DNA from: Candidatus Aenigmatarchaeota archaeon
GTDB lineage: Archaea > Aenigmatarchaeota > Aenigmatarchaeia > CG10238-14 > SpSt-28
Assembly (NCBI GenBank): GCA_018920305.1
Contig: JAHLMO010000004.1
Location: forward strand, 1-41,086
Direction: 5' to 3'
Length of the DNA stretch: 41,086 nucleotides
Below the pieces are notes generated by a model that searched no databases, was not told the DNA's origin, and worked only from the letters and a program-made list of their open reading frames with translations. A program made the position numbers and the translations under genes. This document shows, in pieces, positions 833 to 39,679 of this stretch. Positions within the stretch are counted from its first letter, which is position 1. Every line of letters starts with the position of its first letter.

Positions 833-854
833 AAAACATTATTCGAATGTTTTT
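832..854. terminator. Bidirectional terminator-like stem between convergent genes
   Basis: AAAAACATT (832-840) and AATGTTTTT (846-854) form a 9-bp inverted repeat around a 5-nt loop. It covers the stop codon ends of two convergent genes and gives a T-run on either strand. The assignment is inferred from position and symmetry. Confidence 0.5.
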
Positions 855-1687
855 ATCATTCTAATTACTTCTGAACTATTTCGTAATTCATAAGTAGCAA
901 TAGCTATTTTATTAGCAATTTCTTTAGCAACATTTCCTTCGTACTTTCTAATAGTTTTAGCCATTTCAATAACAGCTTCTTTATCTCTTAATCGAGAAGC
1001 AACGATAGCTATTCTCATGGCAATTCCTCTAGCAACATTTCCTTCATATTTTTCAATAGTTTTAGCCATTTCAATAACAGCTTCTTTATCTCTTAATTCA
1101 TAAGCGGTAAGAGCTGTCCAAATAGCAATTTCTCTAGCAACATCTTCTTCATATTTTCTAATAGTATTAACAACTTCATCCGTTCTAAGTATTTTGCTAA
1201 TTTCGGCAATTGCTTTTTCATCTTTTGATTGATAAGCAGCAAAAGCTATTTCACTAGCAATTTCTCTAGCAACACTTCCTTCATACTTTTTAATAGTATT
1301 AACAACTTCATCCATTCCAAGTATTCTGCTAATTTTAACAACTTCATCTTTGTCTCTTATTCGATAGGCAGCATTAGCTATTCTATCAGCGATTTCTTTA
1401 GCAACACTTCCTTCATACTTTCCAATAGTTCTAGCCATTTCAATAATTGCTTCTTTATTTCTTAATTGATAACTGGAAAAAGCTATTTTATTAGCAATTT
1501 CTCTAGCAATATCTTCTTCATATTTTTCGATTGTATCTCTAATTTCTTTGTTAGCTAGTATTTCAATTACTTTTTCATCTTCAAGAATACTTGGACTAAC
1601 ACCTAAATTTTCAAATAATTTTTTTGTTTCGAAAAGTTCTTCAGCGAGTTCTTTATTTTGTTTTTTTGTTGCGTTTTCCCCCATCAT
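839..1687 (-). CDS. HEAT-like helical repeat protein, short paralogue
   Basis: This 282-residue protein of unknown function begins with two adjacent Met codons (MMGEN), followed by a charged helical segment (residues 5-50) and five tandem alpha-helical units (residues 76-268). Units are of two lengths, 35 and 44 residues, each containing a KY-E-G/D-(V/I)A-x-E-IA core and an A-Y end, as expected for two antiparallel helices. It is a close paralogue of the larger gene just upstream on the same strand (1827-4223). It stops at the point where that protein passes into its C-terminal domain, so it is a repeat-only version. There is no signal peptide or membrane segment, so it should be cytoplasmic. 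A TATA-like AAATATATATTTTTA lies upstream near 1703-1717. It could be a protein-interaction scaffold or a decaying duplicate. Confidence 0.8.
   Translation of the reverse strand: MMGENATKKQNKELAEELFETKKLFENLGVSPSILEDEKVIEILANKEIRDTIEKYEEDIAREIANKIAFSSYQLRNKEAIIEMARTIGKYEGSVAKEIADRIANAAYRIRDKDEVVKISRILGMDEVVNTIKKYEGSVAREIASEIAFAAYQSKDEKAIAEISKILRTDEVVNTIRKYEEDVAREIAIWTALTAYELRDKEAVIEMAKTIEKYEGNVARGIAMRIAIVASRLRDKEAVIEMAKTIRKYEGNVAKEIANKIAIATYELRNSSEVIRMIKTFE
884..1462 (-). repeat. Five tandem 35/44-codon helical repeats
   Basis: Order in the protein is 35, 44, 44, 35, 35 residues (105 or 132 bp). The 44-residue form carries an extra nine residues (ILGMDEVVN region). Copies are similar at DNA level, pointing to unequal recombination or slippage. 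Confidence 0.8.
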
Positions 1688-1826: not shown

Positions 1827-4223
1827 CTATTGACTAATTCTAACGATGTATCCTCTTATTGGTTTTTTTGCCTCGAGATAAGCGCCCGTATTTAATTTCA
1901 TTTCGATTTCTTTTTCTTCTAAATTTTTTCTTTTTAGATAATCTAAGAATTTTCTAGATGTTTCGTTCATAACATTTGTATTAAATATTACAATCTCAAC
2001 TCCCCATTCTTTTGCTCTTTCAATTAAATCTCTATAAACAATTTCAAATATCTCTTCTTTTCTGAATCTTCTATGCCCTTCTATAGAATCAACTAATAGT
2101 TTCTTATCTTCCAAGTAACAAATTGCACTTCCTAATGTTTTATTTCCAATATCGTATTTTATCAATTTAATTCTATCGTCTTTACAATATTTAAGAATTC
2201 CATCTTCCATACGCGCTCCATAAGGAAGATAAACGCAAGCCATTTGTATTCTATTATCATAATCTAAAGGATTCTTACTCTCAACAGCTTTGACAACATT
2301 ACTATTTATATTTACATCTCTATAGTTAATCGCGTTAATAACATCGATTATTGCTTCATTATTCGTTTGTTTTAGTATACTAATTGCTTTTTCATAATTT
2401 TTTTCATTAAAAGCGTTTGCTATTTCTCTAATTAAGTTTCTATAATTTTTATAAAACTCATTTCTTGCCCTATTTACTGTTTTTTCTCCAACAATACTAG
2501 AAATAATTTTTATAGCTTCCTTTTCGAGGTTTTTATTTTTCGAACCAACTATAGCTATAATAGAGTATTTTTCGAGATCTTTTCTACTATAATTCAGAGA
2601 ATTGTCTCCATCTTTTATAGAGAGGGAGTAGTACTTAGGATTTACTTCTTTTGAAATATTTACTAAATTAATAATTTCTTCTCTAAGATGTCTCTGAGTG
2701 CTAAATAATAGCAATAATTGATCATAATTTATATCTTTTTTTAGACCATACTTACTTTTTAGATGATTTAATGCTAAATCTAAATAATTATCTATGTTAT
2801 TTTTTGTTGGTAGTGGAAGCTCTTTATTTGATTTTATGTAAATAGCAATAGCATAAAGATCTTTTTTGTCTCTAACTAAATTATCTAATCCAAGATTGAT
2901 TACTTTATATAATTCGCGACTACTAAAAAAATCAAAAATATCTTCACCAAATTTTTCAGTAAATCTTATTAGTCTAGTTACTTTCGAAGCATCTCTTAAT
3001 TCAGTTATAGCATAAACAATCCTTATAGCGACTTCTTCAGCGGTAACTCCTTTATATTTTTTAATAACATTAACAACTTCATCCATTCCAAGTATTTTAC
3101 CAATTCTAATGGCTTCATTTTCATCTTCTGATTCGTAAAAAGTAGCAACTATTAAATCTACAATTTCTCTAGCAACACTTCCTTCATATTTTCTAATAGT
3201 ATTAACAACTTCATCCATTCCAAGTATTCTGCTAATTTTAGCAACTTCATCTTTATTTCTTGAGGCATGAGCTGCAGCGCCAATCCATATAGCAACTTCT
3301 TCAGCAGCAACTCCTTCATATTTTCTAATAGTATTAACAACTTCATCCATTCCAAGTATTCTGCTAATTTTAACAATTTCATCTTTATTTCCTAGCTCAT
3401 AGGCAGAAATAGCTATTCTATAAGCGATTTCTTTAGCAATGCTTCCTTCATATTTTTCAATAGTTCTAGCTATTTCAATAAGTGCCTCTTCATCCCTTAA
3501 TTCATAAGCAGTGGTAGCTATTCTATCAGCGATTTCTTTAGCAATGTCTTCTTCATATTTTCTAATAACATTAACAACTTCATCCATTCCAAGTATTCTG
3601 CTAATTTTAACAATTTCATCTTTGTCTCTTAATAGATAAGCAACAAAAGCTATTTTATTAGCAATTTTTCTAGCAACATTTCCTTCATATTTTTCAATAG
3701 TTCTAGCTATTTCAATAAGTGCCTCTTCATCTCTTAATTCATAAGCAATACGAGCTATCCAATCAGCAACTTCTCTAGCAACACTTTCTTCATATTTTCT
3801 AATAACATTAACAACTTCATCCATTCCAAGTATTCTGCTAATTTTAACAACTTCGTCTTCGTTTCTTAATATATAGGCAGCATTAGCTATTCTATCAGCG
3901 ATTTCTTTAGCGGGAGAACCTTTATATTTTCTAATAGTATTAACAACTTCATCCATTCCAAGTATTCTGCTAATTTTAACAACTTCATCTTTATTTCTTA
4001 TTCGATGAGCAGCAATAGCTATTCTAGCAGCAATTTCTTTAGCAACATCTTCTTCATATTTTTCGATTGTATCTCTAATTTCTTTGTTAGCTAATATTTC
4101 AATTACTTTTTCATCTTCAAGAATACTTGGACTAACGCCTAAATTTTCAAATAATCTTTTCGTTTCGAAAAGTTCTTCAGCGAGTTCTTTATTCTGTTTT
4201 TTTGTTGTGTTTTCTCCCATCAT
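1827..4223 (-). CDS. HEAT-like helical repeat protein with C-terminal GNAT-like domain
   Basis: A protein of 798 residues from the ATG at 4223. A GTG at 4238 would add five residues, but the ATG-ATG-GGA start matches the paralogue at 839-1687. Residues 76-409 are eight helical repeats of 44 or 35 residues. A mixed helical region follows, then a last domain of about 150 residues (654-798). This has a beta-strand pattern (GSAICYLEDKKLLVDSIEG), a long helix with RDLIERAKEWG, and VIFNT followed by R-K-F-L-D-Y-L. That arrangement recalls GNAT acetyltransferases, but I see no unambiguous acetyl-CoA-binding loop, so the fold call is tentative. There is no export signal. The near-identical repeat DNA suggests recent expansion. 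The substrate is unknown; the repeats may present partners to the C-terminal domain. Confidence 0.8.
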   Translation of the reverse strand: MMGENTTKKQNKELAEELFETKRLFENLGVSPSILEDEKVIEILANKEIRDTIEKYEEDVAKEIAARIAIAAHRIRNKDEVVKISRILGMDEVVNTIRKYKGSPAKEIADRIANAAYILRNEDEVVKISRILGMDEVVNVIRKYEESVAREVADWIARIAYELRDEEALIEIARTIEKYEGNVARKIANKIAFVAYLLRDKDEIVKISRILGMDEVVNVIRKYEEDIAKEIADRIATTAYELRDEEALIEIARTIEKYEGSIAKEIAYRIAISAYELGNKDEIVKISRILGMDEVVNTIRKYEGVAAEEVAIWIGAAAHASRNKDEVAKISRILGMDEVVNTIRKYEGSVAREIVDLIVATFYESEDENEAIRIGKILGMDEVVNVIKKYKGVTAEEVAIRIVYAITELRDASKVTRLIRFTEKFGEDIFDFFSSRELYKVINLGLDNLVRDKKDLYAIAIYIKSNKELPLPTKNNIDNYLDLALNHLKSKYGLKKDINYDQLLLLFSTQRHLREEIINLVNISKEVNPKYYSLSIKDGDNSLNYSRKDLEKYSIIAIVGSKNKNLEKEAIKIISSIVGEKTVNRARNEFYKNYRNLIREIANAFNEKNYEKAISILKQTNNEAIIDVINAINYRDVNINSNVVKAVESKNPLDYDNRIQMACVYLPYGARMEDGILKYCKDDRIKLIKYDIGNKTLGSAICYLEDKKLLVDSIEGHRRFRKEEIFEIVYRDLIERAKEWGVEIVIFNTNVMNETSRKFLDYLKRKNLEEKEIEMKLNTGAYLEAKKPIRGYIVRISQ
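2997..3998 (-). repeat. Eight tandem 35/44-codon helical repeats
   Basis: The order in the protein is 44, 44, 35, 44, 35, 44, 44, 44 residues. A 20-base stretch encoding the GMDEVV region recurs six times with almost no change, always in the 44-residue form. The same stretch occurs in the neighbouring paralogue near 1307-1324. Confidence 0.8.
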
Positions 4224-4319
4224 GATATATGTTATCACGAATTGATAGTATAAAATTAAATTTAAATATTTTTCTATATTTTTTTATATAGAAATTCTAT
4301 AAATATTTTTATTGAAAAA

Positions 4320-30417: not shown

Positions 30418-31806
30418 TTAACATTGAAGAAATGGAAGTGAAGATAAGTATTTCCAACTTTCTTCGGCAAAAGCTCTAGGTTCTGGTGCTCCTGCAAAAC
30501 TCATTATATCCCTTCCTCCGAATCTATTTTTATTACCAAAACAAGTTACATCGTAGCTTCTCGGACATTTTGTACCTCTTTCACCACAATATTCTCTTGT
30601 ATATGGTGGAACAGGATCATCTCCACTAAGATACGATTTTAAACAGTTAGCTCTTGGATTTACTAAACCAAAACCACATCTACACGCATCTATATATTCG
30701 TCGTTAAGTCCAAATTCATGACCAAGTTCATGAGTAGTTATTTCTCTAGAAAGTGCTGATGCAACAACTACTTTCATCAGCATAGAATAACCGCCAGCTC
30801 CACAAATTAAACCTTCTACTAGACCAACAATATAGTCATATGTTTCTCCTGTACTATCTGCGCACCTTTTGATTTCCATCAAATTATTCCTTAGACCTAT
30901 ATTACCACACTCTATTTTAAATCTACAATTTTTTTCGACTATTATAGACTTAACCTTTTCTGGACAAGCAGATAATGGAATACTTTTAACAAAAAAATCA
31001 AATTGTTCCTCGGCAGCTCTTCTAAAACTTTGCATATCTCTATTCCAATTTACAGGTATAAACAGAATTCTCAATTTTGGTTTTTCTTCTATACAATCAA
31101 TTCCGTTCCAATATTTTCCTTCTTCGCAACATGCTCTACTATATTTTTTAAAACCAGATGCAACTGGATTGCATCTTAAATTACCAGAACATTGATTATC
31201 ACAAAAACATTCTTCTCCTCTATTTTTTTTCTTTGTGTATCCTTTTTCGTCTGAATTTGGATCTTCTGGACAACAAACTTTTTCTTTAGTATCTTCAATA
31301 CAATCTATTGAATTTCTACAATTCTCACCAATGAATCTATTACAATAACCATCTCCAATACATATTGGATTTGGTCCTTTACATTCTCTCGATTCCAATT
31401 TGCATTTTTCTATATCACAAAAATTAGTAGAAATATTAATTGGATAATCACAGTTAAAAATTTTTATCTTTTCGGAATCTTTTAGAATACAATATTTAGA
31501 AGCTTTATATATTTCTGTTTCTTCTATATTAAAATCGAGAAAAAAAGAATAGTTTCTATTCCCAATATTAATTTTTATTATATTATCTTTAACTATTAAA
31601 TCACTTAATCCAAGAAAATATTGTGTATAAAAATATTCTGTTGAAATTTTCGAAATTTTCTTAATTAATTCGATAAAATTTTTAACTTTCTCTTCTTCTA
31701 TCTTTTTTTCGATTTCTTTAGAAAAATAAAATAATAAGTTTTGAACAGAAGAAAATATTATAATTCCTATAAGAAATGAAATAATTATTATAGATATCAA
31801 ATTCAT
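30418..31806 (-). CDS. Membrane-anchored zinc metalloprotease, M64/metzincin-like
   Basis: A 462-residue protein. An N-terminal helix (about 5-27) anchors it, then a coiled and beta stalk (28-120) and a Cys-rich module (about 125-235; ICIGDGYCN, CCPEDPNSDEKG, CSGNLRCN) lead to a protease domain. The zinc site is HELGHEFGLNDEY (H359, H363, then D369 or E370), which matches the HExGHxx-L-DEY pattern of peptidase family M64. DIMSF at 433-437 looks like the metzincin Met-turn. More cysteines follow (CRCGF, CGERGTKC). It should sit outside the cell. It is 2 nt downstream of a pilin-like gene in the same operon. It might process surface proteins or attack another cell; neither is proven. Confidence 0.82.
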   Translation of the reverse strand: MNLISIIIISFLIGIIIFSSVQNLLFYFSKEIEKKIEEEKVKNFIELIKKISKISTEYFYTQYFLGLSDLIVKDNIIKINIGNRNYSFFLDFNIEETEIYKASKYCILKDSEKIKIFNCDYPINISTNFCDIEKCKLESRECKGPNPICIGDGYCNRFIGENCRNSIDCIEDTKEKVCCPEDPNSDEKGYTKKKNRGEECFCDNQCSGNLRCNPVASGFKKYSRACCEEGKYWNGIDCIEEKPKLRILFIPVNWNRDMQSFRRAAEEQFDFFVKSIPLSACPEKVKSIIVEKNCRFKIECGNIGLRNNLMEIKRCADSTGETYDYIVGLVEGLICGAGGYSMLMKVVVASALSREITTHELGHEFGLNDEYIDACRCGFGLVNPRANCLKSYLSGDDPVPPYTREYCGERGTKCPRSYDVTCFGNKNRFGGRDIMSFAGAPEPRAFAEESWKYLSSLPFLQC

Positions 31807-31808
31807 AG

Positions 31809-32324
31809 TTATACTACTCTTAAAACAATATAACCAACCTCTCCATCAGGTATAGGAATTGTCAAAACATAACTTTTTATATTACTTTTTCTGTTATCTA
31901 ATATATCATTACCATAGACATAGTATAACGTTTGATTATAATATATAACTAATTGCCATCTATTTTTTCCTATAAAATTATCAAAAATAGGAAAAATTAT
32001 ATCTGAAACATTATATGCTCCCAATGAAATTCCATAAAAGACTTTATCTCCTAAATCTATTCTTTTTCTTGTTTCTTCATCATATCTTTTTAAATATAAT
32101 AAACTATCGATCATCATTTGAAGGTATGTTTTTTCTAATGTTTGAAATTTTGCAATATATAATTTGGCAATTAATCTAAGTGCTAAATCATCGAATACTA
32201 TAGATCTAGATATTTCATGAGTTTTAGAGGAAAAATAAGAAGTATAATAGATAGAATAAATTATTACAAAAGAAGTAATAATTACAACAATTATAATCCA
32301 TATTAATTCTGATTGAAATATCAT
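31809..32324 (-). CDS. Pilin-like bitopic membrane protein
   Basis: A protein of 171 residues from ATG 32324; the open frame extends 15 codons further but into the start of the divergent gene. It begins MIFQSELIWIII, then a hydrophobic helix to about residue 29, a helical stretch 36-70 and a beta-rich end. The FQSELIWI start recalls mature type IV pilins (hydrophobic helix with an early Glu), though no basic prepilin leader is present. It is the first gene of the leftward operon including the metalloprotease. Only 21 bp separates its start from the divergent beta-propeller gene, so both promoters must overlap or lie inside coding sequence. Confidence 0.72.
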   Translation of the reverse strand: MIFQSELIWIIIVVIITSFVIIYSIYYTSYFSSKTHEISRSIVFDDLALRLIAKLYIAKFQTLEKTYLQMMIDSLLYLKRYDEETRKRIDLGDKVFYGISLGAYNVSDIIFPIFDNFIGKNRWQLVIYYNQTLYYVYGNDILDNRKSNIKSYVLTIPIPDGEVGYIVLRVV

Positions 32325-32345: not shown

Positions 32346-34148
32346 ATGAAAAAAAAGTTTAAAATTCAATCAACTCATTTTTTAGCTATAATTTCAATAG
32401 TAATTTCTCTTTTTTCAATTTCTTTAATAATTTTTTATAATGAATATTTTAGGTCAAAATATTTGGAAGAACAAGAAAAAATAAATTTTAAAAACGAAGT
32501 TTATCAAATCGCTAAAAAATTAATAAGTTGTTTAGGAGAGGAAAAAGAAGGAATTTTTTATATTAACAAATCTAAACTCGACAAATTTTCTAAATTATAT
32601 GAAGAAATTGAGCCGAGATGTGCAATAGCAGATAGTTTTGATTATACAGTTAAAGTAATTCAATTAGAAAAAGAAATACGAAACTATCCATTTAATTTAG
32701 GAGGGGGATGTGGATGGGCATGGGTAATAAATAGTGGAGCGGGTAAAATGCATAGTTCTGTTTCTTTAGTAACTTCAGATGGAAAAGAATTAAGAAGACA
32801 CTATACATCTCCAAATATGGATGGAGATCCTTCTAGAACTGCTGTTGATAAAATGGGAAATATATGGGTTGGTAATAGAAATAATAATTTGTTAGTGAAA
32901 ATTGCGTTTGATAAAAATCTTTGTAAAGGAAAAATTCCAGAAGATGTTAATAAAAACGGTAAAATAGATGAAGATGAAATGATTTCTTTTAATGAAGATG
33001 GATGTATATTGGCAAAAATTTATTTGAAAGATTGTTATAGAGGAGATAGAGGTATAAGGGCTGTGTGTATTGATAAAGATGAAAATGTATATGTAGGATG
33101 CTGGGATAGTAGAAAATTATTTAAAATTTCTAAAGATGGAAAAATAGAAAAAGAGTGGCGACTTCCATCTAGTCCTTATGGTTGTGTAGTTGGTAACGAT
33201 GGAAAAGTATACATTACTACACTTTCTTCTAATATTTTAATATTAGATCCAGAAAGCGGAAATATAGAAAATATAAATATTGGTACATATGAAGCTACTT
33301 ATGGTGTTTGGAGATGTTATAATTTAGATTGCATAGTTTTTTCTACATGGCAAGATGGAGGAGTAATTTTATTCGATACAACTTCTAAAAAAATAATTTG
33401 GAAAAATTATTGCGGTAGCTATACTAGAGGAGTTTTCGTTGATAAAGAAAATAATATTTATGTAGTTTCTAGTAGTCACTCTAAAGTATGTAAATTTAAT
33501 TTTAAAGGAAAACTCATAAAGGAAGCACTTACTTGTAAAGAACCAACAGGAATATCTATGGATGCTTGTGGTAATTTATGGGTTGAATGCAGATCTTCAG
33601 GAATCGATATCTTTGATACAGATCTTAATAAAATCAATTCCTTTACAATCTTAGGTTCTCACTATACCTATTCTGATTTTACTGGTTTTCTTTCAGATGC
33701 AAGAGTAGAGATAGCAGAGGTTGAGGAAAGAAAAATCATCATAGAAAGAAAAGAGTGGAATTTTGGTTTAAGAGGTAGTGAAGTTTTAGGTGGAAAAATA
33801 TCTATAGGTCCAAAAATTTATTACGAAACTTCAATTTCTTTACCTATTTTAATAAAATATAATGAGACACATATAATCGAAGGAATTTTAGTAATCACAG
33901 CTTATAAAGGATTTTTAGAAATTTTCTATAGCTTCCTAGACAGTTTATGCAATAAAGAAATAAAAGAATTAGAAATATCAAAAAAATTTTATTTCGATTA
34001 TGATGTAAAAGTATTTAAAGATAAAGTATGTAGCGAAAATGTCTGTAAAAAACTTGTTTGTAATTATGATATAGAGGAAAAAGAATTTAAAAAAGGAGAA
34101 AATATAATAAATATAAAAATATATGACGGAAAACTAATTTTTAGTTAA
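32346..34148 (+). CDS. Membrane-anchored beta-propeller protein (NHL/Vgb-like)
   Basis: A protein of 600 residues from ATG 32346; an upstream start at 32313 would overlap the divergent gene. MKKKFKIQSTHFLAII leads into one membrane helix (about 9-32). A pilin-like helical segment with a C-x-GEEKEG pattern spans 40-95. A propeller covers about 120-430, with repeated VDKMGNIWVG, IDKDENVYVG, VGNDGKVYI, VDKENNIYVV and MDACGNLWVE strands like NHL or streptogramin-lyase (Vgb) blades. An inserted DVNKNGKIDEDE loop is a good dockerin/EF-hand calcium site. A C-terminal beta region with several Cys follows. It is probably an extracellular binding or adhesion protein. It heads a three-gene rightward group with close spacing (11 and 6 nt). 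Confidence 0.82.
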   Translation: MKKKFKIQSTHFLAIISIVISLFSISLIIFYNEYFRSKYLEEQEKINFKNEVYQIAKKLISCLGEEKEGIFYINKSKLDKFSKLYEEIEPRCAIADSFDYTVKVIQLEKEIRNYPFNLGGGCGWAWVINSGAGKMHSSVSLVTSDGKELRRHYTSPNMDGDPSRTAVDKMGNIWVGNRNNNLLVKIAFDKNLCKGKIPEDVNKNGKIDEDEMISFNEDGCILAKIYLKDCYRGDRGIRAVCIDKDENVYVGCWDSRKLFKISKDGKIEKEWRLPSSPYGCVVGNDGKVYITTLSSNILILDPESGNIENINIGTYEATYGVWRCYNLDCIVFSTWQDGGVILFDTTSKKIIWKNYCGSYTRGVFVDKENNIYVVSSSHSKVCKFNFKGKLIKEALTCKEPTGISMDACGNLWVECRSSGIDIFDTDLNKINSFTILGSHYTYSDFTGFLSDARVEIAEVEERKIIIERKEWNFGLRGSEVLGGKISIGPKIYYETSISLPILIKYNETHIIEGILVITAYKGFLEIFYSFLDSLCNKEIKELEISKKFYFDYDVKVFKDKVCSENVCKKLVCNYDIEEKEFKKGENIINIKIYDGKLIFS

Positions 34149-34159
34149 TTAATAAAAAG

Positions 34160-35416
34160 ATGAATCCAATTCACATTTCTATAATAATATTTTCGGTTTT
34201 TATTTTATTATTAAGTTATTTTTTCTTGAATGTTAATTTTTCAAAATTTGCTGAAAAGTTTTTTGAAATTAAAAAGATAGATATATTTGAAAATATAAAA
34301 AATATTATTTCATCTTATTCTAAGTTATCTCTTTATTATTCAGCAACTTATAATTTGAGAGGCGAATCCCATACATGGATTTTTAATGGTTTCAATCCCT
34401 TAGAGTTTGAATTTTTAAAAAGTTGTAAAGAAAATATTACTAGAGATTTATTTAATACTTATTTATCAAAATTTTATATTTCTCTACCTCTAAATATAAA
34501 TATAAATTTTACTCAAAAATGTCAGTGGAATTTAAAGGAAGAAGATGTATTTTTCGGAAAGCATGATGAAGGAAAATTTAGTTTAAATTGCTCAGAAGTA
34601 GAAATTATTATCTTTACTAATGATACTATTTCGTTAGATAAAATTGAACCAGAAAATTTTATAACGAATAATAGATATTGGTATTTATATAGAAAAATAT
34701 ATGAGTGGGCTAGAGAAAATGGTGATGAATTTGCAAGTTGTGTTTGTAGCTTAGTTAGTTCTTGTGCAGATTGTAAATCAATAGATATATGCTATCAAAA
34801 TTTGTTTGAATCTTTAAAAGAAAAGTTTAAAGATGATGAATATGTAATTTGTAGAAAAACAAAACCATGTTGCTATAGAGAATTGGGTGAGCCTTGTATT
34901 GATTTAGACGGTTGTCACTTTTGGACAAAAAATATTTGCTATTTAGATCCAAATTATGAATGTCCTTCTATAGGTTCTAATTTTGAGAAAGTGTTTCCTA
35001 TTACTAGGGTTTCTTCTTCAAATGTTTTTATTTATTTAACATGTTTATGGATCGAAAATAGAATGGAAACGAGTGTAATTTATGAATGCAGCGAACATAA
35101 ATATTATGAATCAACACCTTCAGGTCCTGATAAGCTAATCTTTACAATTGGAGTTTTTGCAGGTTGGAAAAATTATAAAGCTTGCAGAGAGATAATAGAA
35201 TGTTATTATGACGCAAATAATGCTAAATGCAAAAATTGTAATAATAATATATGTGAAGTTTGTTATTTGCCTTTTATAAGTTGTGAAAAAAAACCATGCT
35301 ATCCACCTCCAAAATACATGGAATGTATGAATTGTAAAGCTCAATGTAGAAATGAAACTTGTAAAGTCATAAGATGCGAAGAATGTAAGGATAAAGAAGA
35401 AAAATGTTTTTCCTAA
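34160..35416 (+). CDS. Cys-rich bitopic surface protein
   Basis: A 418-residue protein with one N-terminal helix (about 5-25, MNPIHISIIIFSVFIL) and a large ectodomain carrying around 40 cysteines, very dense in the last 100 residues (CKNCNNNICEVCYLPF, CMNCKAQC, CEECKDKEEKC). No known family is recognised. The spacing gives CxxC knuckles that could bind zinc or form disulfides; outside the cell, disulfides are more likely. It follows the propeller gene by 11 nt and precedes a small pilin-like gene by 6 nt, so all three should be co-expressed. It could be a filament tip or cross-linked surface component. Confidence 0.75.
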   Translation: MNPIHISIIIFSVFILLLSYFFLNVNFSKFAEKFFEIKKIDIFENIKNIISSYSKLSLYYSATYNLRGESHTWIFNGFNPLEFEFLKSCKENITRDLFNTYLSKFYISLPLNININFTQKCQWNLKEEDVFFGKHDEGKFSLNCSEVEIIIFTNDTISLDKIEPENFITNNRYWYLYRKIYEWARENGDEFASCVCSLVSSCADCKSIDICYQNLFESLKEKFKDDEYVICRKTKPCCYRELGEPCIDLDGCHFWTKNICYLDPNYECPSIGSNFEKVFPITRVSSSNVFIYLTCLWIENRMETSVIYECSEHKYYESTPSGPDKLIFTIGVFAGWKNYKACREIIECYYDANNAKCKNCNNNICEVCYLPFISCEKKPCYPPPKYMECMNCKAQCRNETCKVIRCEECKDKEEKCFS

Positions 35417-35422
35417 AAAATT

Positions 35423-35806
35423 ATGAAAATATTTGAGATTATAATTATTTTAATTTTTACACTTTTTTCTTTAATAATTATCTTTCAATATTTTTTTGAA
35501 AATAGATTAGAAATAAAAGAAAAAGAGATTGTAATAAATTCGAAAGAAAATTATTTATCTAAAATAAGAGATTTAATAGTTAGTTGCTTTAATGAGAATA
35601 AAAAAGAAAATAAAATAATTGTGTGCTACAAAATAAATTATTTAGGAAAAAACGAAATTAAAAAGAAAGAGATCGAAAAAGCAATCTCCAATTTAAATAT
35701 ATATGTTGAAATAAATTTTGAAACAATTAATACAAACGAGAAAACTATAATTGTTTATTCTATTGATAAAATTGTATTGAAAAAAGCAAAAGAGATAATA
35801 GGTTAA
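35423..35806 (+). CDS. Small pilin-like bitopic protein
   Basis: A 127-residue protein: MKIFEIIIILIFTLFSLIII, one helix (about 5-26), then a Lys/Glu-rich region. It has a paired-Cys motif, DLIVSCFNE then 14 residues to IVCYKINY, shared in outline with other small proteins in this cluster (36288-36809, 39284-39679). Its stop lies on the palindromic TTAA shared with the convergent gene at 35803. There is no prepilin leader and no recognised family. Confidence 0.68.
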   Translation: MKIFEIIIILIFTLFSLIIIFQYFFENRLEIKEKEIVINSKENYLSKIRDLIVSCFNENKKENKIIVCYKINYLGKNEIKKKEIEKAISNLNIYVEINFETINTNEKTIIVYSIDKIVLKKAKEIIG

Positions 35807-36285
35807 AATATCTCAACTTTAGTAAAATTTCTATACAAAGTAACTACAATTTCAAATTCCTTAATTCCATAGAAAGATTTAATAATAAAATCTAAAAACT
35901 CTTTTCTTCTTTCAAAATGATAAGTTTTCATGCTTGCGTTACAGCTCAATTTTTCACATTTTATTCTTTCATCTTTATAAGCTATACATAGAAATTCGCC
36001 TTCAATAACTTTATCTTTAATATCGTTTAAATTATCTAGTTTTGTAATACTTATAGGATAAACAAAAAGTGCTCGAACGTTTTCATTTAATATAATTTTT
36101 TCGTCTTCTTGAGAAAACGGAAAACTCCAACACATGTTTTCTATCTTATTTCTTAAATTATAAAAACTTTTAAAAACTTTGTTTCTACTTTCTTCCTCTC
36201 TATATATACCAAACAAATAAACAAAAGTGAATAAAAGAATTATCGAAACTATTGCTGCAAAAATTATTTGAAACGGTATTTCCAT
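35803..36285 (-). CDS. Small pilin-like bitopic protein
   Basis: A 160-residue protein beginning MEIPFQIIFAAIVSIILLF, one helix (about 6-27), followed by NKVFKSFYNLRNKIENMC, with the early helical region and Cys seen in neighbours. The ectodomain has C-x-A-Y-K and CEKLSC pairs. It is 2 nt downstream of a similar gene on the same strand and its stop overlaps that of the convergent gene by 4 nt. No prepilin peptidase cleavage site is visible. It is probably one of a family of minor subunits of the same surface machinery. Confidence 0.68.
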   Translation of the reverse strand: MEIPFQIIFAAIVSIILLFTFVYLFGIYREEESRNKVFKSFYNLRNKIENMCWSFPFSQEDEKIILNENVRALFVYPISITKLDNLNDIKDKVIEGEFLCIAYKDERIKCEKLSCNASMKTYHFERRKEFLDFIIKSFYGIKEFEIVVTLYRNFTKVEIF

Positions 36286-36287
36286 AA

Positions 36288-36809
36288 CTATGCAATAATT
36301 TCTATTTGATTAGAATCTAAATATTTTATTATTACTATATCATCTTTTCGAATATATCTGTTTTCTACATTCCATACTATATCATCTCTATATCCACAAT
36401 TATAACTTTGAAACTGAAGAGTTCTACAATTATCGTAATCTCTCAAAACTTTTGAAATGTTATGTGGAAAAATTTTGAAATCCTTTGATGTATGGAAAGA
36501 AATTTTAAAGCAATAATGTGTTTTAAAATTTTTATATTTTTCAGCTTCTATCCAACATTTAATCAAATAAGATGTAAATTTTCTTATAATTTCATCTTCA
36601 TCTTCAGAAAAAATTTTTATACTTTCGATATTTTCCTCAATTTTACATTTTTCTGGAATTTTTTGGTTTGGAAAAATTTTTGTATATAAGTTACAATAGA
36701 AATAATTTGAGATATTTTCCTTCCAAAAGATTATTATACTAATTGAAATAAGTAAAGCTGCAATTCCTATAACAAAATACCAATTAATTTCAATTGCAAT
36801 TAATTTCAT
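36288..36809 (-). CDS. Small pilin-like bitopic protein
   Basis: A 173-residue protein beginning MKLIAIEINWYFVIGIAALL, one helix (about 8-28). The AIE-x-x-(W/F) start copies the mature N-terminus of archaeal pilins (typically G/A-I-E-Y after cleavage), but only MKL precedes it. It carries the cluster motif SYLIKCWIEAEKYKN leading to HYCFKISF, plus further Cys. It is divergently transcribed from the TadC-like gene, with 35 bp between start codons, which supports a functional link to that secretion platform. Confidence 0.72.
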   Translation of the reverse strand: MKLIAIEINWYFVIGIAALLISISIIIFWKENISNYFYCNLYTKIFPNQKIPEKCKIEENIESIKIFSEDEDEIIRKFTSYLIKCWIEAEKYKNFKTHYCFKISFHTSKDFKIFPHNISKVLRDYDNCRTLQFQSYNCGYRDDIVWNVENRYIRKDDIVIIKYLDSNQIEIIA

Positions 36810-36844
36810 AATAAATATTATTTTTGTTTCTAAATTTTAGAATT

Positions 36845-38911
36845 ATGATTTCTGAAGAAAAACTTCAAAAATTAAAAAAAGAATTTTCTGATGTTTATAT
36901 CGAATTTTATCTAAGAGAATTAGAAAAAAAGGAAAGAAAAAATTGGTATGAAAAACTTTGTTATATTTCATCTAAAATTATTCCTTTGAAAATCGAAAAT
37001 AAAAAATTAAGTGAAGATATAGTTTTTTCAAATTTAAATGTTTTACCGAGTGAAGTAATTTCTTTGGCTTTATTTTCTTTTATTTTTCTTTTTATAATTT
37101 TCATCCCCCTTTATTTCGTTTTTACTGATATTGGAATTTTTTTATTTATAGTTCCAATAGGAGTTTCTTTTATACTTTATAACTATCCTAGTTTTAAAGC
37201 ACAAGTAAATAAAATTCAAACTAATAGCGAAGCGATTAAAATTATAACTTATTTAGTTTTATATTTAGAGCAAAATCCAAATTTTGAGGCTGCACTAGAA
37301 TTTACTTCTAGGAAAGTTAAAGGAATATTAGCTGACGATATAAGAAAAATAATATGGGATCTAAAAACAGGAAGATTTTCTAATTTAAAACAAGCTATTG
37401 AATTTTATGTTCCAAAATGGATGAAATGGAATGAAAATTTTGTTAGAACGTTAATTTTATTATCTAATATAGGCTATGTTACTTCTCAAGAAGAAAGAAG
37501 AAATTTGTTGAGAAAAGCACTAGATTTTATTTTATCGAAAAATTTAGAAGAAACAAAAATATATGTAGAAAAAGTTAGAAATCCAATAACACTTCTTTTT
37601 ATGTTTGGCTTATTAATGCCATCAATTGGTTTAATTATGTTTCCCATGATTTCTGTTTTTTTGCATTTGTCTGTAAAACCAGGATATATAATTTTTGGAT
37701 ATTTAGTTGTTTTGCCATTATTGAATTTATATTTAATAACTAGAACTATTTCTTTAAGGCCTGGAGCTTTTTTGGTAGTAGATATTTCTAAACATCCTAA
37801 ATTAGCTCCAACAAATTATTTTTATTTGGGAAAAAATTTAATTCCAATAATACCTTTAGTGATTATTGTTTTCTTAATAATAAGTCTCTATGGATTTTTG
37901 CATTTTATTGATTTTTACTCAGAATATTATAAACTTTTAAATATAGGTGCTGAAAGAAAGTTAGAAGAGTTAATAAGAGAGGAAAATAGCATAGAAAATA
38001 TCGGAAATTTAATTGCCAGCTTTCTTATTCCATTAGCTTTAGGAGTTTCTTTATTTCTATATTTTTATTTAAATTCCTTTCAGAAAATTAAAATGAGAAA
38101 AGAAGTTAAAGATATAGAAGAAGATCTTCCTAATCTTTTAGTAACGAGCGGAAATTTTTTGGAATCTGGATATCCAATTGAGAAAACAATAGAAAAAACT
38201 TTAGAAGAGTATGAAAGATTAGGATTAAAAGAAAAACCTGGTTACAAATTTTTTAGTCTTTTAAGAGAAAGAATAATGAAATTTGGAGAAAATGTTAACT
38301 TAGCAATATTTGGTAAGAATGGATTAATTAATTATTTTCCTTCAGTATTATTAGAAGAGGTGTTTAGAATTTTAATAGATACAACTTATAAAAGTGTAAG
38401 AAGTGCAGGTAACATAGCAAAAACTATAGCGAGATATTTAGAAAATATATTTCAAGCTGAATTTAGACTAAAAGAATTGTTAAGCGATGTTAGAGGTAAT
38501 TTGAAAATGCAAGCACAATTTTTAATTCCAATAATTACTGGAATAGTTTCTTCCACAGGAATATTTATTATTAATATGCTTGCAATTTTATCTAATTGGT
38601 TAGGAGAATTAGAAAAAGCTTTCGGAGCAGTTGGAACATTTAAAGAAATTATTGATGTAATGGTCGGAGATTTTAGAAAAGTAATTCCACTAACAGTTTT
38701 ACAAGCTGTTGTTGGATGTTATACTGTTATTGCAATAGTCTTAATGTCTTATTTACTTAGTGGAATAGAAAGTGGGTTTGATAGAGTTGCAAGAGATTAT
38801 GAAATTGCTGAAAATTTAAAATTTGGATTAATAATATATTTTATAGTTGGAATTATGAGTTTAATTGTATTTTCACAAATTACTCAACAATTAAAACTAG
38901 GACTAACTTAA
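36845..38911 (+). CDS. TadC/FlaJ-like type IV filament platform protein
   Basis: A protein of 688 residues from ATG 36845; a TTG at 36824 would add seven. It has two halves, each with a cytoplasmic helical T2SSF-type domain and membrane helices. First: SEAIKIITYLVLYLEQNPNFEAALEF with helices at about 69-110 and 250-310. Second: DIEEDLPNLLVTSGNFLESGYPIEKTIEKT (about 420-450) with flanking helices at 340-365, 390-410, 560-585, 620-645 and 660-685. This is the layout of archaeal pilus and archaellum membrane platforms that assemble pilins with a secretion ATPase. No ATPase (TadA/FlaI) or prepilin peptidase lies in the window. It is longer than typical FlaJ. It is followed 1 nt later by a pilin-like gene. 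Confidence 0.87.
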   Translation: MISEEKLQKLKKEFSDVYIEFYLRELEKKERKNWYEKLCYISSKIIPLKIENKKLSEDIVFSNLNVLPSEVISLALFSFIFLFIIFIPLYFVFTDIGIFLFIVPIGVSFILYNYPSFKAQVNKIQTNSEAIKIITYLVLYLEQNPNFEAALEFTSRKVKGILADDIRKIIWDLKTGRFSNLKQAIEFYVPKWMKWNENFVRTLILLSNIGYVTSQEERRNLLRKALDFILSKNLEETKIYVEKVRNPITLLFMFGLLMPSIGLIMFPMISVFLHLSVKPGYIIFGYLVVLPLLNLYLITRTISLRPGAFLVVDISKHPKLAPTNYFYLGKNLIPIIPLVIIVFLIISLYGFLHFIDFYSEYYKLLNIGAERKLEELIREENSIENIGNLIASFLIPLALGVSLFLYFYLNSFQKIKMRKEVKDIEEDLPNLLVTSGNFLESGYPIEKTIEKTLEEYERLGLKEKPGYKFFSLLRERIMKFGENVNLAIFGKNGLINYFPSVLLEEVFRILIDTTYKSVRSAGNIAKTIARYLENIFQAEFRLKELLSDVRGNLKMQAQFLIPIITGIVSSTGIFIINMLAILSNWLGELEKAFGAVGTFKEIIDVMVGDFRKVIPLTVLQAVVGCYTVIAIVLMSYLLSGIESGFDRVARDYEIAENLKFGLIIYFIVGIMSLIVFSQITQQLKLGLT

Positions 38912-38912
38912 T

Positions 38913-39287
38913 ATGTTACCTTTAAATATAATATTTTTAGTAATTATAAGTATAATTGCTGTTATTATAGTTACTATTTTGATTTTAAATGTTAGAGGAA
39001 TTACTTTGGAAAAAATATTAGATTTCTTACATATATATAAACCTTCTTACGAATTTCAAACATGTATTACGAGATTTATTAGTGAAAATAATGTAGATTT
39101 AGATAAATTGTGTAATATATGTAAAAATATTGGAAAAAAAATAAAAAGAAATTGTATTTGTTTTGCTGTGCATGCTAATGAAATATCTTTTTCAAAATGC
39201 GAAAATAGATGTCAAAATATATATGATAACAAAGTTTTATTGATTAGATATTCTTTGGCAGAAGATTTGTCATTTATAGAGTGCTAA
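38913..39287 (+). CDS. Small Cys-rich pilin-like bitopic protein
   Basis: A 124-residue protein: MLPLNIIFLVIISIIAVII, one helix (about 5-27), then a compact ectodomain with ten Cys (TCITRF, CNICKNIGKKIKRNCIC, CENRCQ, terminal EC). It starts 1 nt after the TadC-like gene and is surely co-transcribed. Its stop overlaps the convergent gene by 4 nt. The Cys content suggests a disulfide-locked domain. No family is recognised. Confidence 0.7.
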   Translation: MLPLNIIFLVIISIIAVIIVTILILNVRGITLEKILDFLHIYKPSYEFQTCITRFISENNVDLDKLCNICKNIGKKIKRNCICFAVHANEISFSKCENRCQNIYDNKVLLIRYSLAEDLSFIEC

Positions 39288-39679
39288 TTTATAAAATATA
39301 CGATTTTCTTCTCTTTATTATAAATAATTAATAAATAATTTTTTTCTCTATCGAAATTTTCAATATTTATTTTATTGAAATTATCTATAGTTATACCTTG
39401 AAAGTTTCTAGTTGACTTTAAATAAAAACATGTATAAATACTTATATCTAACTTACTATTTTCAGCTTTTTGTGCACATAGATTAGCAAGTTCTATCAAA
39501 TAATTTGTAGAAAATTTTTCCTTACTAATTATTTCTACTTCAAAACTTTCTAGTTGCTTTTTTTCTTCAGAAAAGCCATGTATGGCATCTTTTATATTAA
39601 AAAAAAAGATGATAAAAACGATAGCTGCTATCATAGACAATATAAAAATAAACACAGTTTCTATTGCGATAACTTTCAT
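39284..39679 (-). CDS. Small pilin-like bitopic protein
   Basis: A 131-residue protein beginning MKVIAIETVFIFILSMIAAIV, one helix (about 8-27). It has the same AIE start as the gene at 36288-36809 and the cluster Cys motif (ELANLCAQKAE then IYTCFYLK). No leader peptide suitable for class III cleavage precedes it. It converges stop-to-stop with the gene at 38913-39287 and is divergent from the small PPFP protein gene, with 42 bp between start codons. Confidence 0.7.
   Translation of the reverse strand: MKVIAIETVFIFILSMIAAIVFIIFFFNIKDAIHGFSEEKKQLESFEVEIISKEKFSTNYLIELANLCAQKAENSKLDISIYTCFYLKSTRNFQGITIDNFNKINIENFDREKNYLLIIYNKEKKIVYFIN

What the first reader, a model, noticed from the sequence alone, without database searches (positions are those of the whole stretch)
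35423..39679. Leaderless pilin-like family with a shared paired-Cys motif
Several small proteins start with a few residues and a hydrophobic helix (MKVIAIETVF, MKLIAIEINW, MKIFEIIII) like already-cleaved archaeal pilins, and share L-I-x-x-C-(W/F) followed 14-17 residues later by C-(Y/F)-K/L. There is no basic-Gly leader for a prepilin peptidase. They may be a pilin class that bypasses processing, stabilised by a disulfide.
Basis: partly seen in the sequence, partly recalled or inferred. Interest (0 to 1): 0.65.

Follow-up and report, generated by a model that had tools for sequence, protein, structure and literature searches.

The report
Archaeal pilins with altered tiny leaders
A tiny-genome archaeon (Aenigmatarchaeota) encodes pilus-like surface proteins with a conserved pair of cysteines, and the three-residue tag normally clipped off such proteins has lost its near-universal glycine or alanine, or is missing altogether, which challenges the rule for how these proteins mature.

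Summary
The proteins are real and related, but "leaderless" is only partly right. Window ORFs 35423, 36288, 38913 and 39284 share one globular domain (TM-free profiles match at E 1e-13) with two invariant cysteines. They flank a FlaJ-like platform protein found in 55/57 relatives. Orthologues in the same genus and phylum carry a three-residue class III leader (MKG|, MRA|). The window's MKV and MKL are that leader with Gly/Ala(-1) replaced by Val/Leu, while Lys(-2) and the residue after the cut are kept. In this genome's pilus loci Gly/Ala/Ser stands at -1 in 5/22 pilin-like starts, versus 192/241 in most relatives. One A24 prepilin peptidase remains with both catalytic Asp, but its GxGD motif reads GLGD only in this genus. 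Orthologues of 38913 are truly leaderless (MSMxLEY): in four genomes a stop codon abuts the ATG, and after Met removal Glu5 stays in register with MKA|QMSLEY. Two confident models (pLDDT 90, 87) share a fold without a PDB match. Whether the altered leaders are still cut is untested; I favour cutting by a peptidase that no longer reads -1.

The parts
35423..35806 (+). pilin-like protein, 127 aa, MKIFEIIIIL; Cys55/Cys68 pair; related to MKGILETIPEFF / MRGIIESLSEF proteins of relatives
36288..36809 (-). pilin-like protein, 173 aa, MKL|IAIEINW; orthologue of MRA|IAIEQFW (same genus) and MKG|IALST (other families); four Cys invariant in its family (39, 55, 85, 100)
38913..39287 (+). pilin-like protein, 124 aa, MLPLNIIF, no leader; orthologue of MIALEYIF (same genus), MSMxLEY (leaderless) and MKA|QMSLEY (leadered)
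39284..39679 (-). pilin-like protein, 131 aa, MKV|IAIETVF; orthologue of MKG|IAISYFF (same genus); Cys68/Cys84 pair
36824..38911 (+). double-T2SF (FlaJ/TadC-like) platform protein, 695 aa
   Evidence: through its paralogue on C17
35803..36285 (-). pilin-like protein of another family, 160 aa, MEIPFQIIF; relatives start MKG|LANWIM
31809..32324 (-). pilin-like protein, MIF|QSELIW; relative in G007 starts MKG|QTQELIW and adjoins that genome's platform gene
32346..34148 (+). N-anchored beta-propeller protein with a class III-like start, KFKI|QSTHFLAI
30418..31806 (-). N-anchored protein with a weak metallopeptidase M64-like match; relatives in G010, G019 and G022 also lack a Lys-Gly leader

Best explanation
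These are pilin-like subunits of a type IV pilus-like machine of Aenigmatarchaeota: an N-terminal TM/assembly helix plus a small beta-alpha-beta-(alpha)-beta-beta-beta domain, in which one Cys on helix 2 and one on strand 2 probably form a disulfide. MKV and MKL are three-residue class III leaders whose -1 residue has drifted from Gly/Ala to bulky residues, as in the other pilus loci of this genome. They are most likely still cut by the genome's A24 peptidase, whose active-site motif has changed (GLGD) so that it no longer selects -1 but still reads Lys(-2) and the +1 side. The neighbouring 38913 family has gone further and starts at or near the mature N-terminus, so it would need no peptidase. 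Shown: homology, shared domain, Cys invariance, leaders in orthologues, -1 drift, a peptidase with both catalytic Asp and altered motifs, leaderless orthologues with Glu5 in register. Inferred: cleavage after Val/Leu, the disulfide, assembly into a filament.
For: Same-genus orthologues read MKG|IAISYFF and MRA|IAIEQFWFF; nearly all others in the 36288 family have [KR][GA]. -1 is G/A/S in 5/22 starts here, 9/13 in the genus-mate and 192/241 in most relatives; in K-x-Q starts 0/7 against 58/66. In ten position-matched G000/G001 pairs -1 is never identical, while K/R(-2) is always kept and +1 nearly so (read). Peptidase present with Asp23 and Asp85; GLGD found only in this genus. Cys pair invariant 31/31 and 33/33; shared domain E 1e-13 without the TM; models pLDDT 90.1 and 87.0. 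Platform gene in 55/57 relatives. PibD cuts 3-residue leaders (PMC4307647).
Against: Known prepilin peptidases need G/A/S at -1 (PMC4371748, PMC10191384), so cutting after Val or Leu has no precedent that I know of. The peptidase could be kept only for the few canonical substrates of this genome (MKG|ISPLIAT, MKA|ISEIV, MKA|ISFSL). The GLGD correlation rests on one genus, and G005 (GEGD) keeps Gly. No solved pilin resembles the models.
Confidence: 0.55

Rival explanations
1. Processing bypass: in this lineage most subunits of these machines are no longer cut. The MK-x residues stay on, and assembly tolerates them or uses the proteins as fixed minor or base components.
For: Bulky -1 residues break the known cleavage rule. 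Orthologues of 38913 show that leader loss really happens, with no room for a hidden leader in four genomes.
Against: Lys(-2), the leader length and the +1 residue (often Gln) are kept while -1 varies, and the peptidase is retained. Lys(-2) could also be kept for membrane topology alone.
Confidence: 0.33
2. The proteins are monotopic accessory proteins of the machine (working like ArlF/ArlG, stator-like or tip parts) with a pilin-derived N-terminus that never polymerises.
For: Fold unlike any solved pilin; many different single-copy members per locus; some relatives lack the leader.
Against: Most orthologues carry class III leaders, which accessory anchors would not need. The predicted mixed alpha/beta order is not the immunoglobulin-like fold reported for FlaF (PMC4307647).
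Confidence: 0.1
3. Chance ORFs or misplaced starts in AT-rich DNA.
For: The window is 28% GC and the N-termini are short and hydrophobic.
Against: Homologues in 30-32 of 156 genomes, invariant Cys, confident models, no alternative in-frame starts upstream, shared neighbourhood with the genus-mate.
Confidence: 0.02

Closest known systems
Archaeal type IV pilins with class III signal peptides (PibD/FlaK/EppA substrates; consensus [KRDE][GA][ALIFQMVED][ILMVTAS], PMC5517150)
   Same: Short basic leader, hydrophobic N-terminal helix, encoded with a T2SF platform; orthologues match the consensus.
   Different: Bulky -1 residue or no leader; three-residue leaders as the norm; alpha/beta Cys-paired domain without a solved counterpart.
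ArlF/ArlG (FlaF/FlaG) of the archaellum
   Same: Monotopic proteins of a type IV filament machine; FlaF has a partial archaellin domain (PMC4307647).
   Different: FlaF has an immunoglobulin-like beta fold; these models are mixed alpha/beta with an invariant Cys pair, and orthologues have cleavable leaders.
A24 GxGD proteases (PibD/FlaK; presenilin by analogy)
   Same: Two catalytic Asp; x of GxGD affects substrate identification in presenilin-1 (PMC2647162).
   Different: Specificity of the Aenigmatarchaeota enzyme is untested; GLGD is found only in this genus among the relatives read.
Archaeal type IV pilus systems surveyed by Makarova et al. 2016 (PMC4858521)
   Same: FlaI-like ATPase, TadC/FlaJ platform, several minor pilins per locus, A24 peptidase encoded elsewhere.
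   Different: Two double-T2SF platforms and many unusual pilin-like genes in an Aenigmatarchaeota-wide locus; I did not match it to one of their clades.

Membership tests
Type IV pilin / class III signal-peptide protein | N-terminal hydrophobic helix right after a very short basic N-terminus | tested here: met
Type IV pilin / class III signal-peptide protein | Cleavage motif with charged -2 and G/A/S at -1 | tested here: not met
   Window proteins have -1 V, L, I or no leader; met by their orthologues
Type IV pilin / class III signal-peptide protein | Glu/Asp near +5 (frequent, not universal in archaea) | tested here: inconclusive
   36288 and 39284 have Glu at +4 counted from MKx|; 35423 has Glu5 and 38913 Asn5 counted from Met
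Type IV pilin / class III signal-peptide protein | Platform protein, assembly ATPase and prepilin peptidase in the same genome | tested here: met
Type IV pilin / class III signal-peptide protein | Pilin-like three-dimensional fold | tested here: inconclusive
   Confident models, but no PDB match at all
Type IV pilin / class III signal-peptide protein | Polymerises into a filament | not testable with these tools
   needs experiment
A24 prepilin peptidase (G000 C12) | Two catalytic Asp, the second in GxGD | tested here: met
   Asp23 and Asp85 (GLGD), conserved with homologues; Pfam PF01478 only below its cut-off, E 8e-4
ArlF/ArlG | Immunoglobulin-like beta-sandwich soluble domain | tested here: not met
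   Models are mixed alpha/beta and Foldseek listed no such entry

The most novel reading that the evidence does not exclude
In one Aenigmatarchaeota genus the prepilin peptidase and its substrates have drifted together so that the near-universal small residue at -1 is no longer needed. In several lineages a subunit family has dropped its leader precisely, so that methionine aminopeptidase alone would yield the mature N-terminus with Glu5 in register: a peptidase-independent type IV filament subunit.
Probability: 0.4. Interest if true: 0.78.

Novelty: new variant of a known kind. Interest (0 to 1): 0.6.

Why it matters
Prepilin peptidase cleavage after a small residue is treated as the defining step of type IV filaments and is how software finds their subunits. 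A lineage in which -1 is bulky, and an orthologous family that is leadered in some genomes and leaderless in others, would explain why motif searches miss such proteins, give natural pairs for testing what the leader does, and provide an enzyme-substrate pair for mapping the specificity of GxGD proteases.

Tried and rejected
Pfam and NCBIfam scans of the small proteins gave nothing credible. The first genome-contig scan with the platform protein found no relative, and the A3 alignment was too divergent for that tool. A PF06847 hit on C18 lies inside a platform gene and was discarded. Foldseek against PDB returned only noise for both models, as did PDB sequence searches. A VKOR search for a disulfide-forming enzyme stayed below cut-off; DsbA-like enzymes were not searched. 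Misplaced starts were rejected by reading the upstream frames. Loss of the peptidase was rejected. The first K-x-Q census lacked genome labels and was redone; one script crashed and was rerun. A motif script missed or misread some GxGD motifs; those genomes were re-read. The ORF caller can choose late starts; the cases that mattered (L051 ATT, L142 GTG, L058 and L121 TTG) were checked by hand.

Full report
WHAT IS THERE. The window is contig C14 of a 554 kb, 94.8% complete genome. A named record of the same order-level group is a Candidatus Aenigmatarchaeota MAG, and the class and phylum searches covered the same number of genomes, 156. The flagged stretch holds small single-pass proteins on both strands around a 695-aa membrane protein, 36824-38911. 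That protein has no Pfam hit of its own, but it matches a paralogue at C17:20024-21982 at E 3e-48, which matches the T2SF platform family PF00482 at E 2e-5, just below the curated cut-off. I read it as a FlaJ/TadC-like double-T2SF platform. It occurs in 55 of 57 relatives, usually in two copies, about 11 kb apart in G012, G014 and G016. In G012 and G014 a 741-758 aa FlaI-like ATPase adjoins the second platform gene; its counterpart in this genome is on contig C15.

THE OBSERVATION. The literal motif L-I-x-x-C-(W/F) is present in only one of the three; the conserved feature is C-x(12-15)-C-[YF]. Shuffles of single proteins reach such a pair in 0.5-20% of cases, so one protein proves little, but the pair is invariant in 31/31 homologues of 36288 (A3, with two further invariant Cys) and 33/33 homologues of the shorter proteins (A4). 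With the TM helix removed, the A3 and A4 profiles match at 98% probability, E 1e-13, Cys on Cys. 38913-39287 belongs to the same superfamily; 35803-36285 lacks the pair and belongs to an MKGLANWIM-type family.

THE LEADER. In the genus-mate G001 the orthologues of 39284 and 36288 start MKG|IAISYFF and MRA|IAIEQFWFF. Across the phylum the 36288 family starts MKG, MNKG, MGKG, LKG, HKG or MRG; two apparent exceptions (L058, L121) are late starts of my ORF caller, with DKG and AKG upstream, and a third (L143) shows no such motif in the letters read upstream. Three-residue leaders can be cut by archaeal PibD (PMC4307647, PMC4187195), and a charged -2 with G/A/S at -1 is the archaeal rule (PMC4371748). 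The window sequences therefore keep the leader's length, Lys(-2) and the +1 side, but not the -1 residue. The same is seen in this genome's other pilus loci (MKI|QSALEYL, MKF|QAEIISYL, MKL|QSFIDYL). A uniform census of pilus loci gives G+A+S at -1 in 5/22 starts for this genome, 9/13 for G001, 8/14 for other members of the family, 9/13 for G006, 6/6 for G005 and 192/241 for the remaining lineages. For K-x-Q starts it is 0/7 against 58/66, Fisher P 4e-6; related sequences are not independent, so the P value is indicative only. In ten operon-position-matched pairs between G000 and G001 the -1 residue is never the same, while K/R(-2) is kept in all and +1 nearly so (my reading). That is the pattern of a relaxed -1 within a leader that is otherwise retained.

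THE PEPTIDASE. One A24 peptidase homologue was found in this genome (C12:31350-32153), with both catalytic Asp. It departs from the family at more conserved positions than any of the 30 compared (11 of 43; the other three family members read have 9, 8 and 7, and G036 has 7); sampling favours other families, so part of this is phylogeny. The motif is GGGD, GGAD or GDGD in the relatives read, but GLGD with a DI(R/K)TTEI(R/K)D first motif in G000 and G001, GAGD in G002 and G003, GYGD in G006 and GEGD in G005. In presenilin-1 the x of GxGD (also Leu) affects substrate identification (PMC2647162). Lineages with a changed x tend to have less Gly at -1, but they are few, and G005 keeps Gly. This is a lead, not a proof.

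THE TRULY LEADERLESS FAMILY. Orthologues of 38913 start MKA|QMSLEY, MIKA|QMSLEY or MKG|DLALD in several lineages. In others they start MSMELEY (G008), MSMVLEY (G014), MSMILEY (G028), MSLEMET (G016), ISLEMET with an ATT start (G012), MSMALEY with a GTG start (G020), MSLALEY (G143) and MIALEYIF (G001); the window has MLPLNIIF. In G008, G014, G016 and G028 an in-frame stop codon directly precedes the ATG, so no leader can be hidden upstream. All the Met-Ser starts put the acidic residue at +5 once the initiator Met is removed, which methionine aminopeptidase is known to do before Ser (general knowledge). That is the register of the cleaved forms. Both states occur within one family (f5), so the change happened more than once or reversed; I did not build a tree.

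STRUCTURE. AlphaFold2 models reach mean pLDDT 90.1 (36288) and 87.0 (39284). Both have an N-terminal helix, then a strand, a helix with the first Cys, a strand with the second Cys, and three more strands; 36288 has extra helices. No PDB match was found.

MECHANISM. Most likely these are subunits of a type IV pilus-like machine whose leaders are cut by a peptidase that has stopped reading -1 (0.55). The main rival is that most are not cut at all (0.33); a minor one is that they are anchored accessory proteins that never polymerise (0.1). The function of the machine (attachment, secretion or uptake) is not shown; the N-anchored beta-propeller (32346-34148) and the metallopeptidase-like protein (30418-31806) suggest a role at the cell surface.

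LITERATURE. The main census of archaeal type IV pili (PMC4858521) notes A24 peptidases in most genomes with a secretion ATPase, two nanoarchaea excepted. A search pairing Aenigmatarchaeota with pilus terms listed no paper that names the phylum among its 12 best. A search for leaderless or unprocessed pilins gave 10 papers whose titles and abstracts show nothing of this kind. Most subscription papers are not in the library, so this absence is weak evidence of novelty.

Noticed in passing
G000:C12:31350-32153 (L088) and G001 (L108): The prepilin peptidase of this genus has GLGD in place of GGGD and Arg/Lys in place of the Pro of the TTEIPD motif, possibly linked to the relaxed -1 residue of its substrates.
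   Followed up: partly
window 30418-31806 (-); L056:3457-5421, L057:15233-16657, L084:13826-15064: A protein with a weak M64 metallopeptidase-like match in this genome is conserved beside the pilin-like genes of relatives, with an N-terminal anchor that lacks a Lys-Gly leader in all four genomes.
   Followed up: no
window 32346-34148 (+): A beta-propeller (SGL/NHL-like) protein carries a pilin-like N-terminus, KFKI|QSTHFLAI, and may be a surface-displayed part of the machine.
   Followed up: no
window 34160-35416 (+): A Cys-rich 418-aa protein with an N-terminal TM helix had no relative among the loci searched.
   Followed up: no
window 839-1687 and 1827-4238 (-): Two proteins made largely of degenerate repeats around 'VVNTIRKYEGSVAREIA...', adjacent and clearly paralogous; not examined.
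   Followed up: no
L055:7391-8182 (G008): A MinD/FleN-like ATPase lies near the pilin-like locus of a relative, as PMC4858521 reports for some archaeal pilus loci.
   Followed up: no
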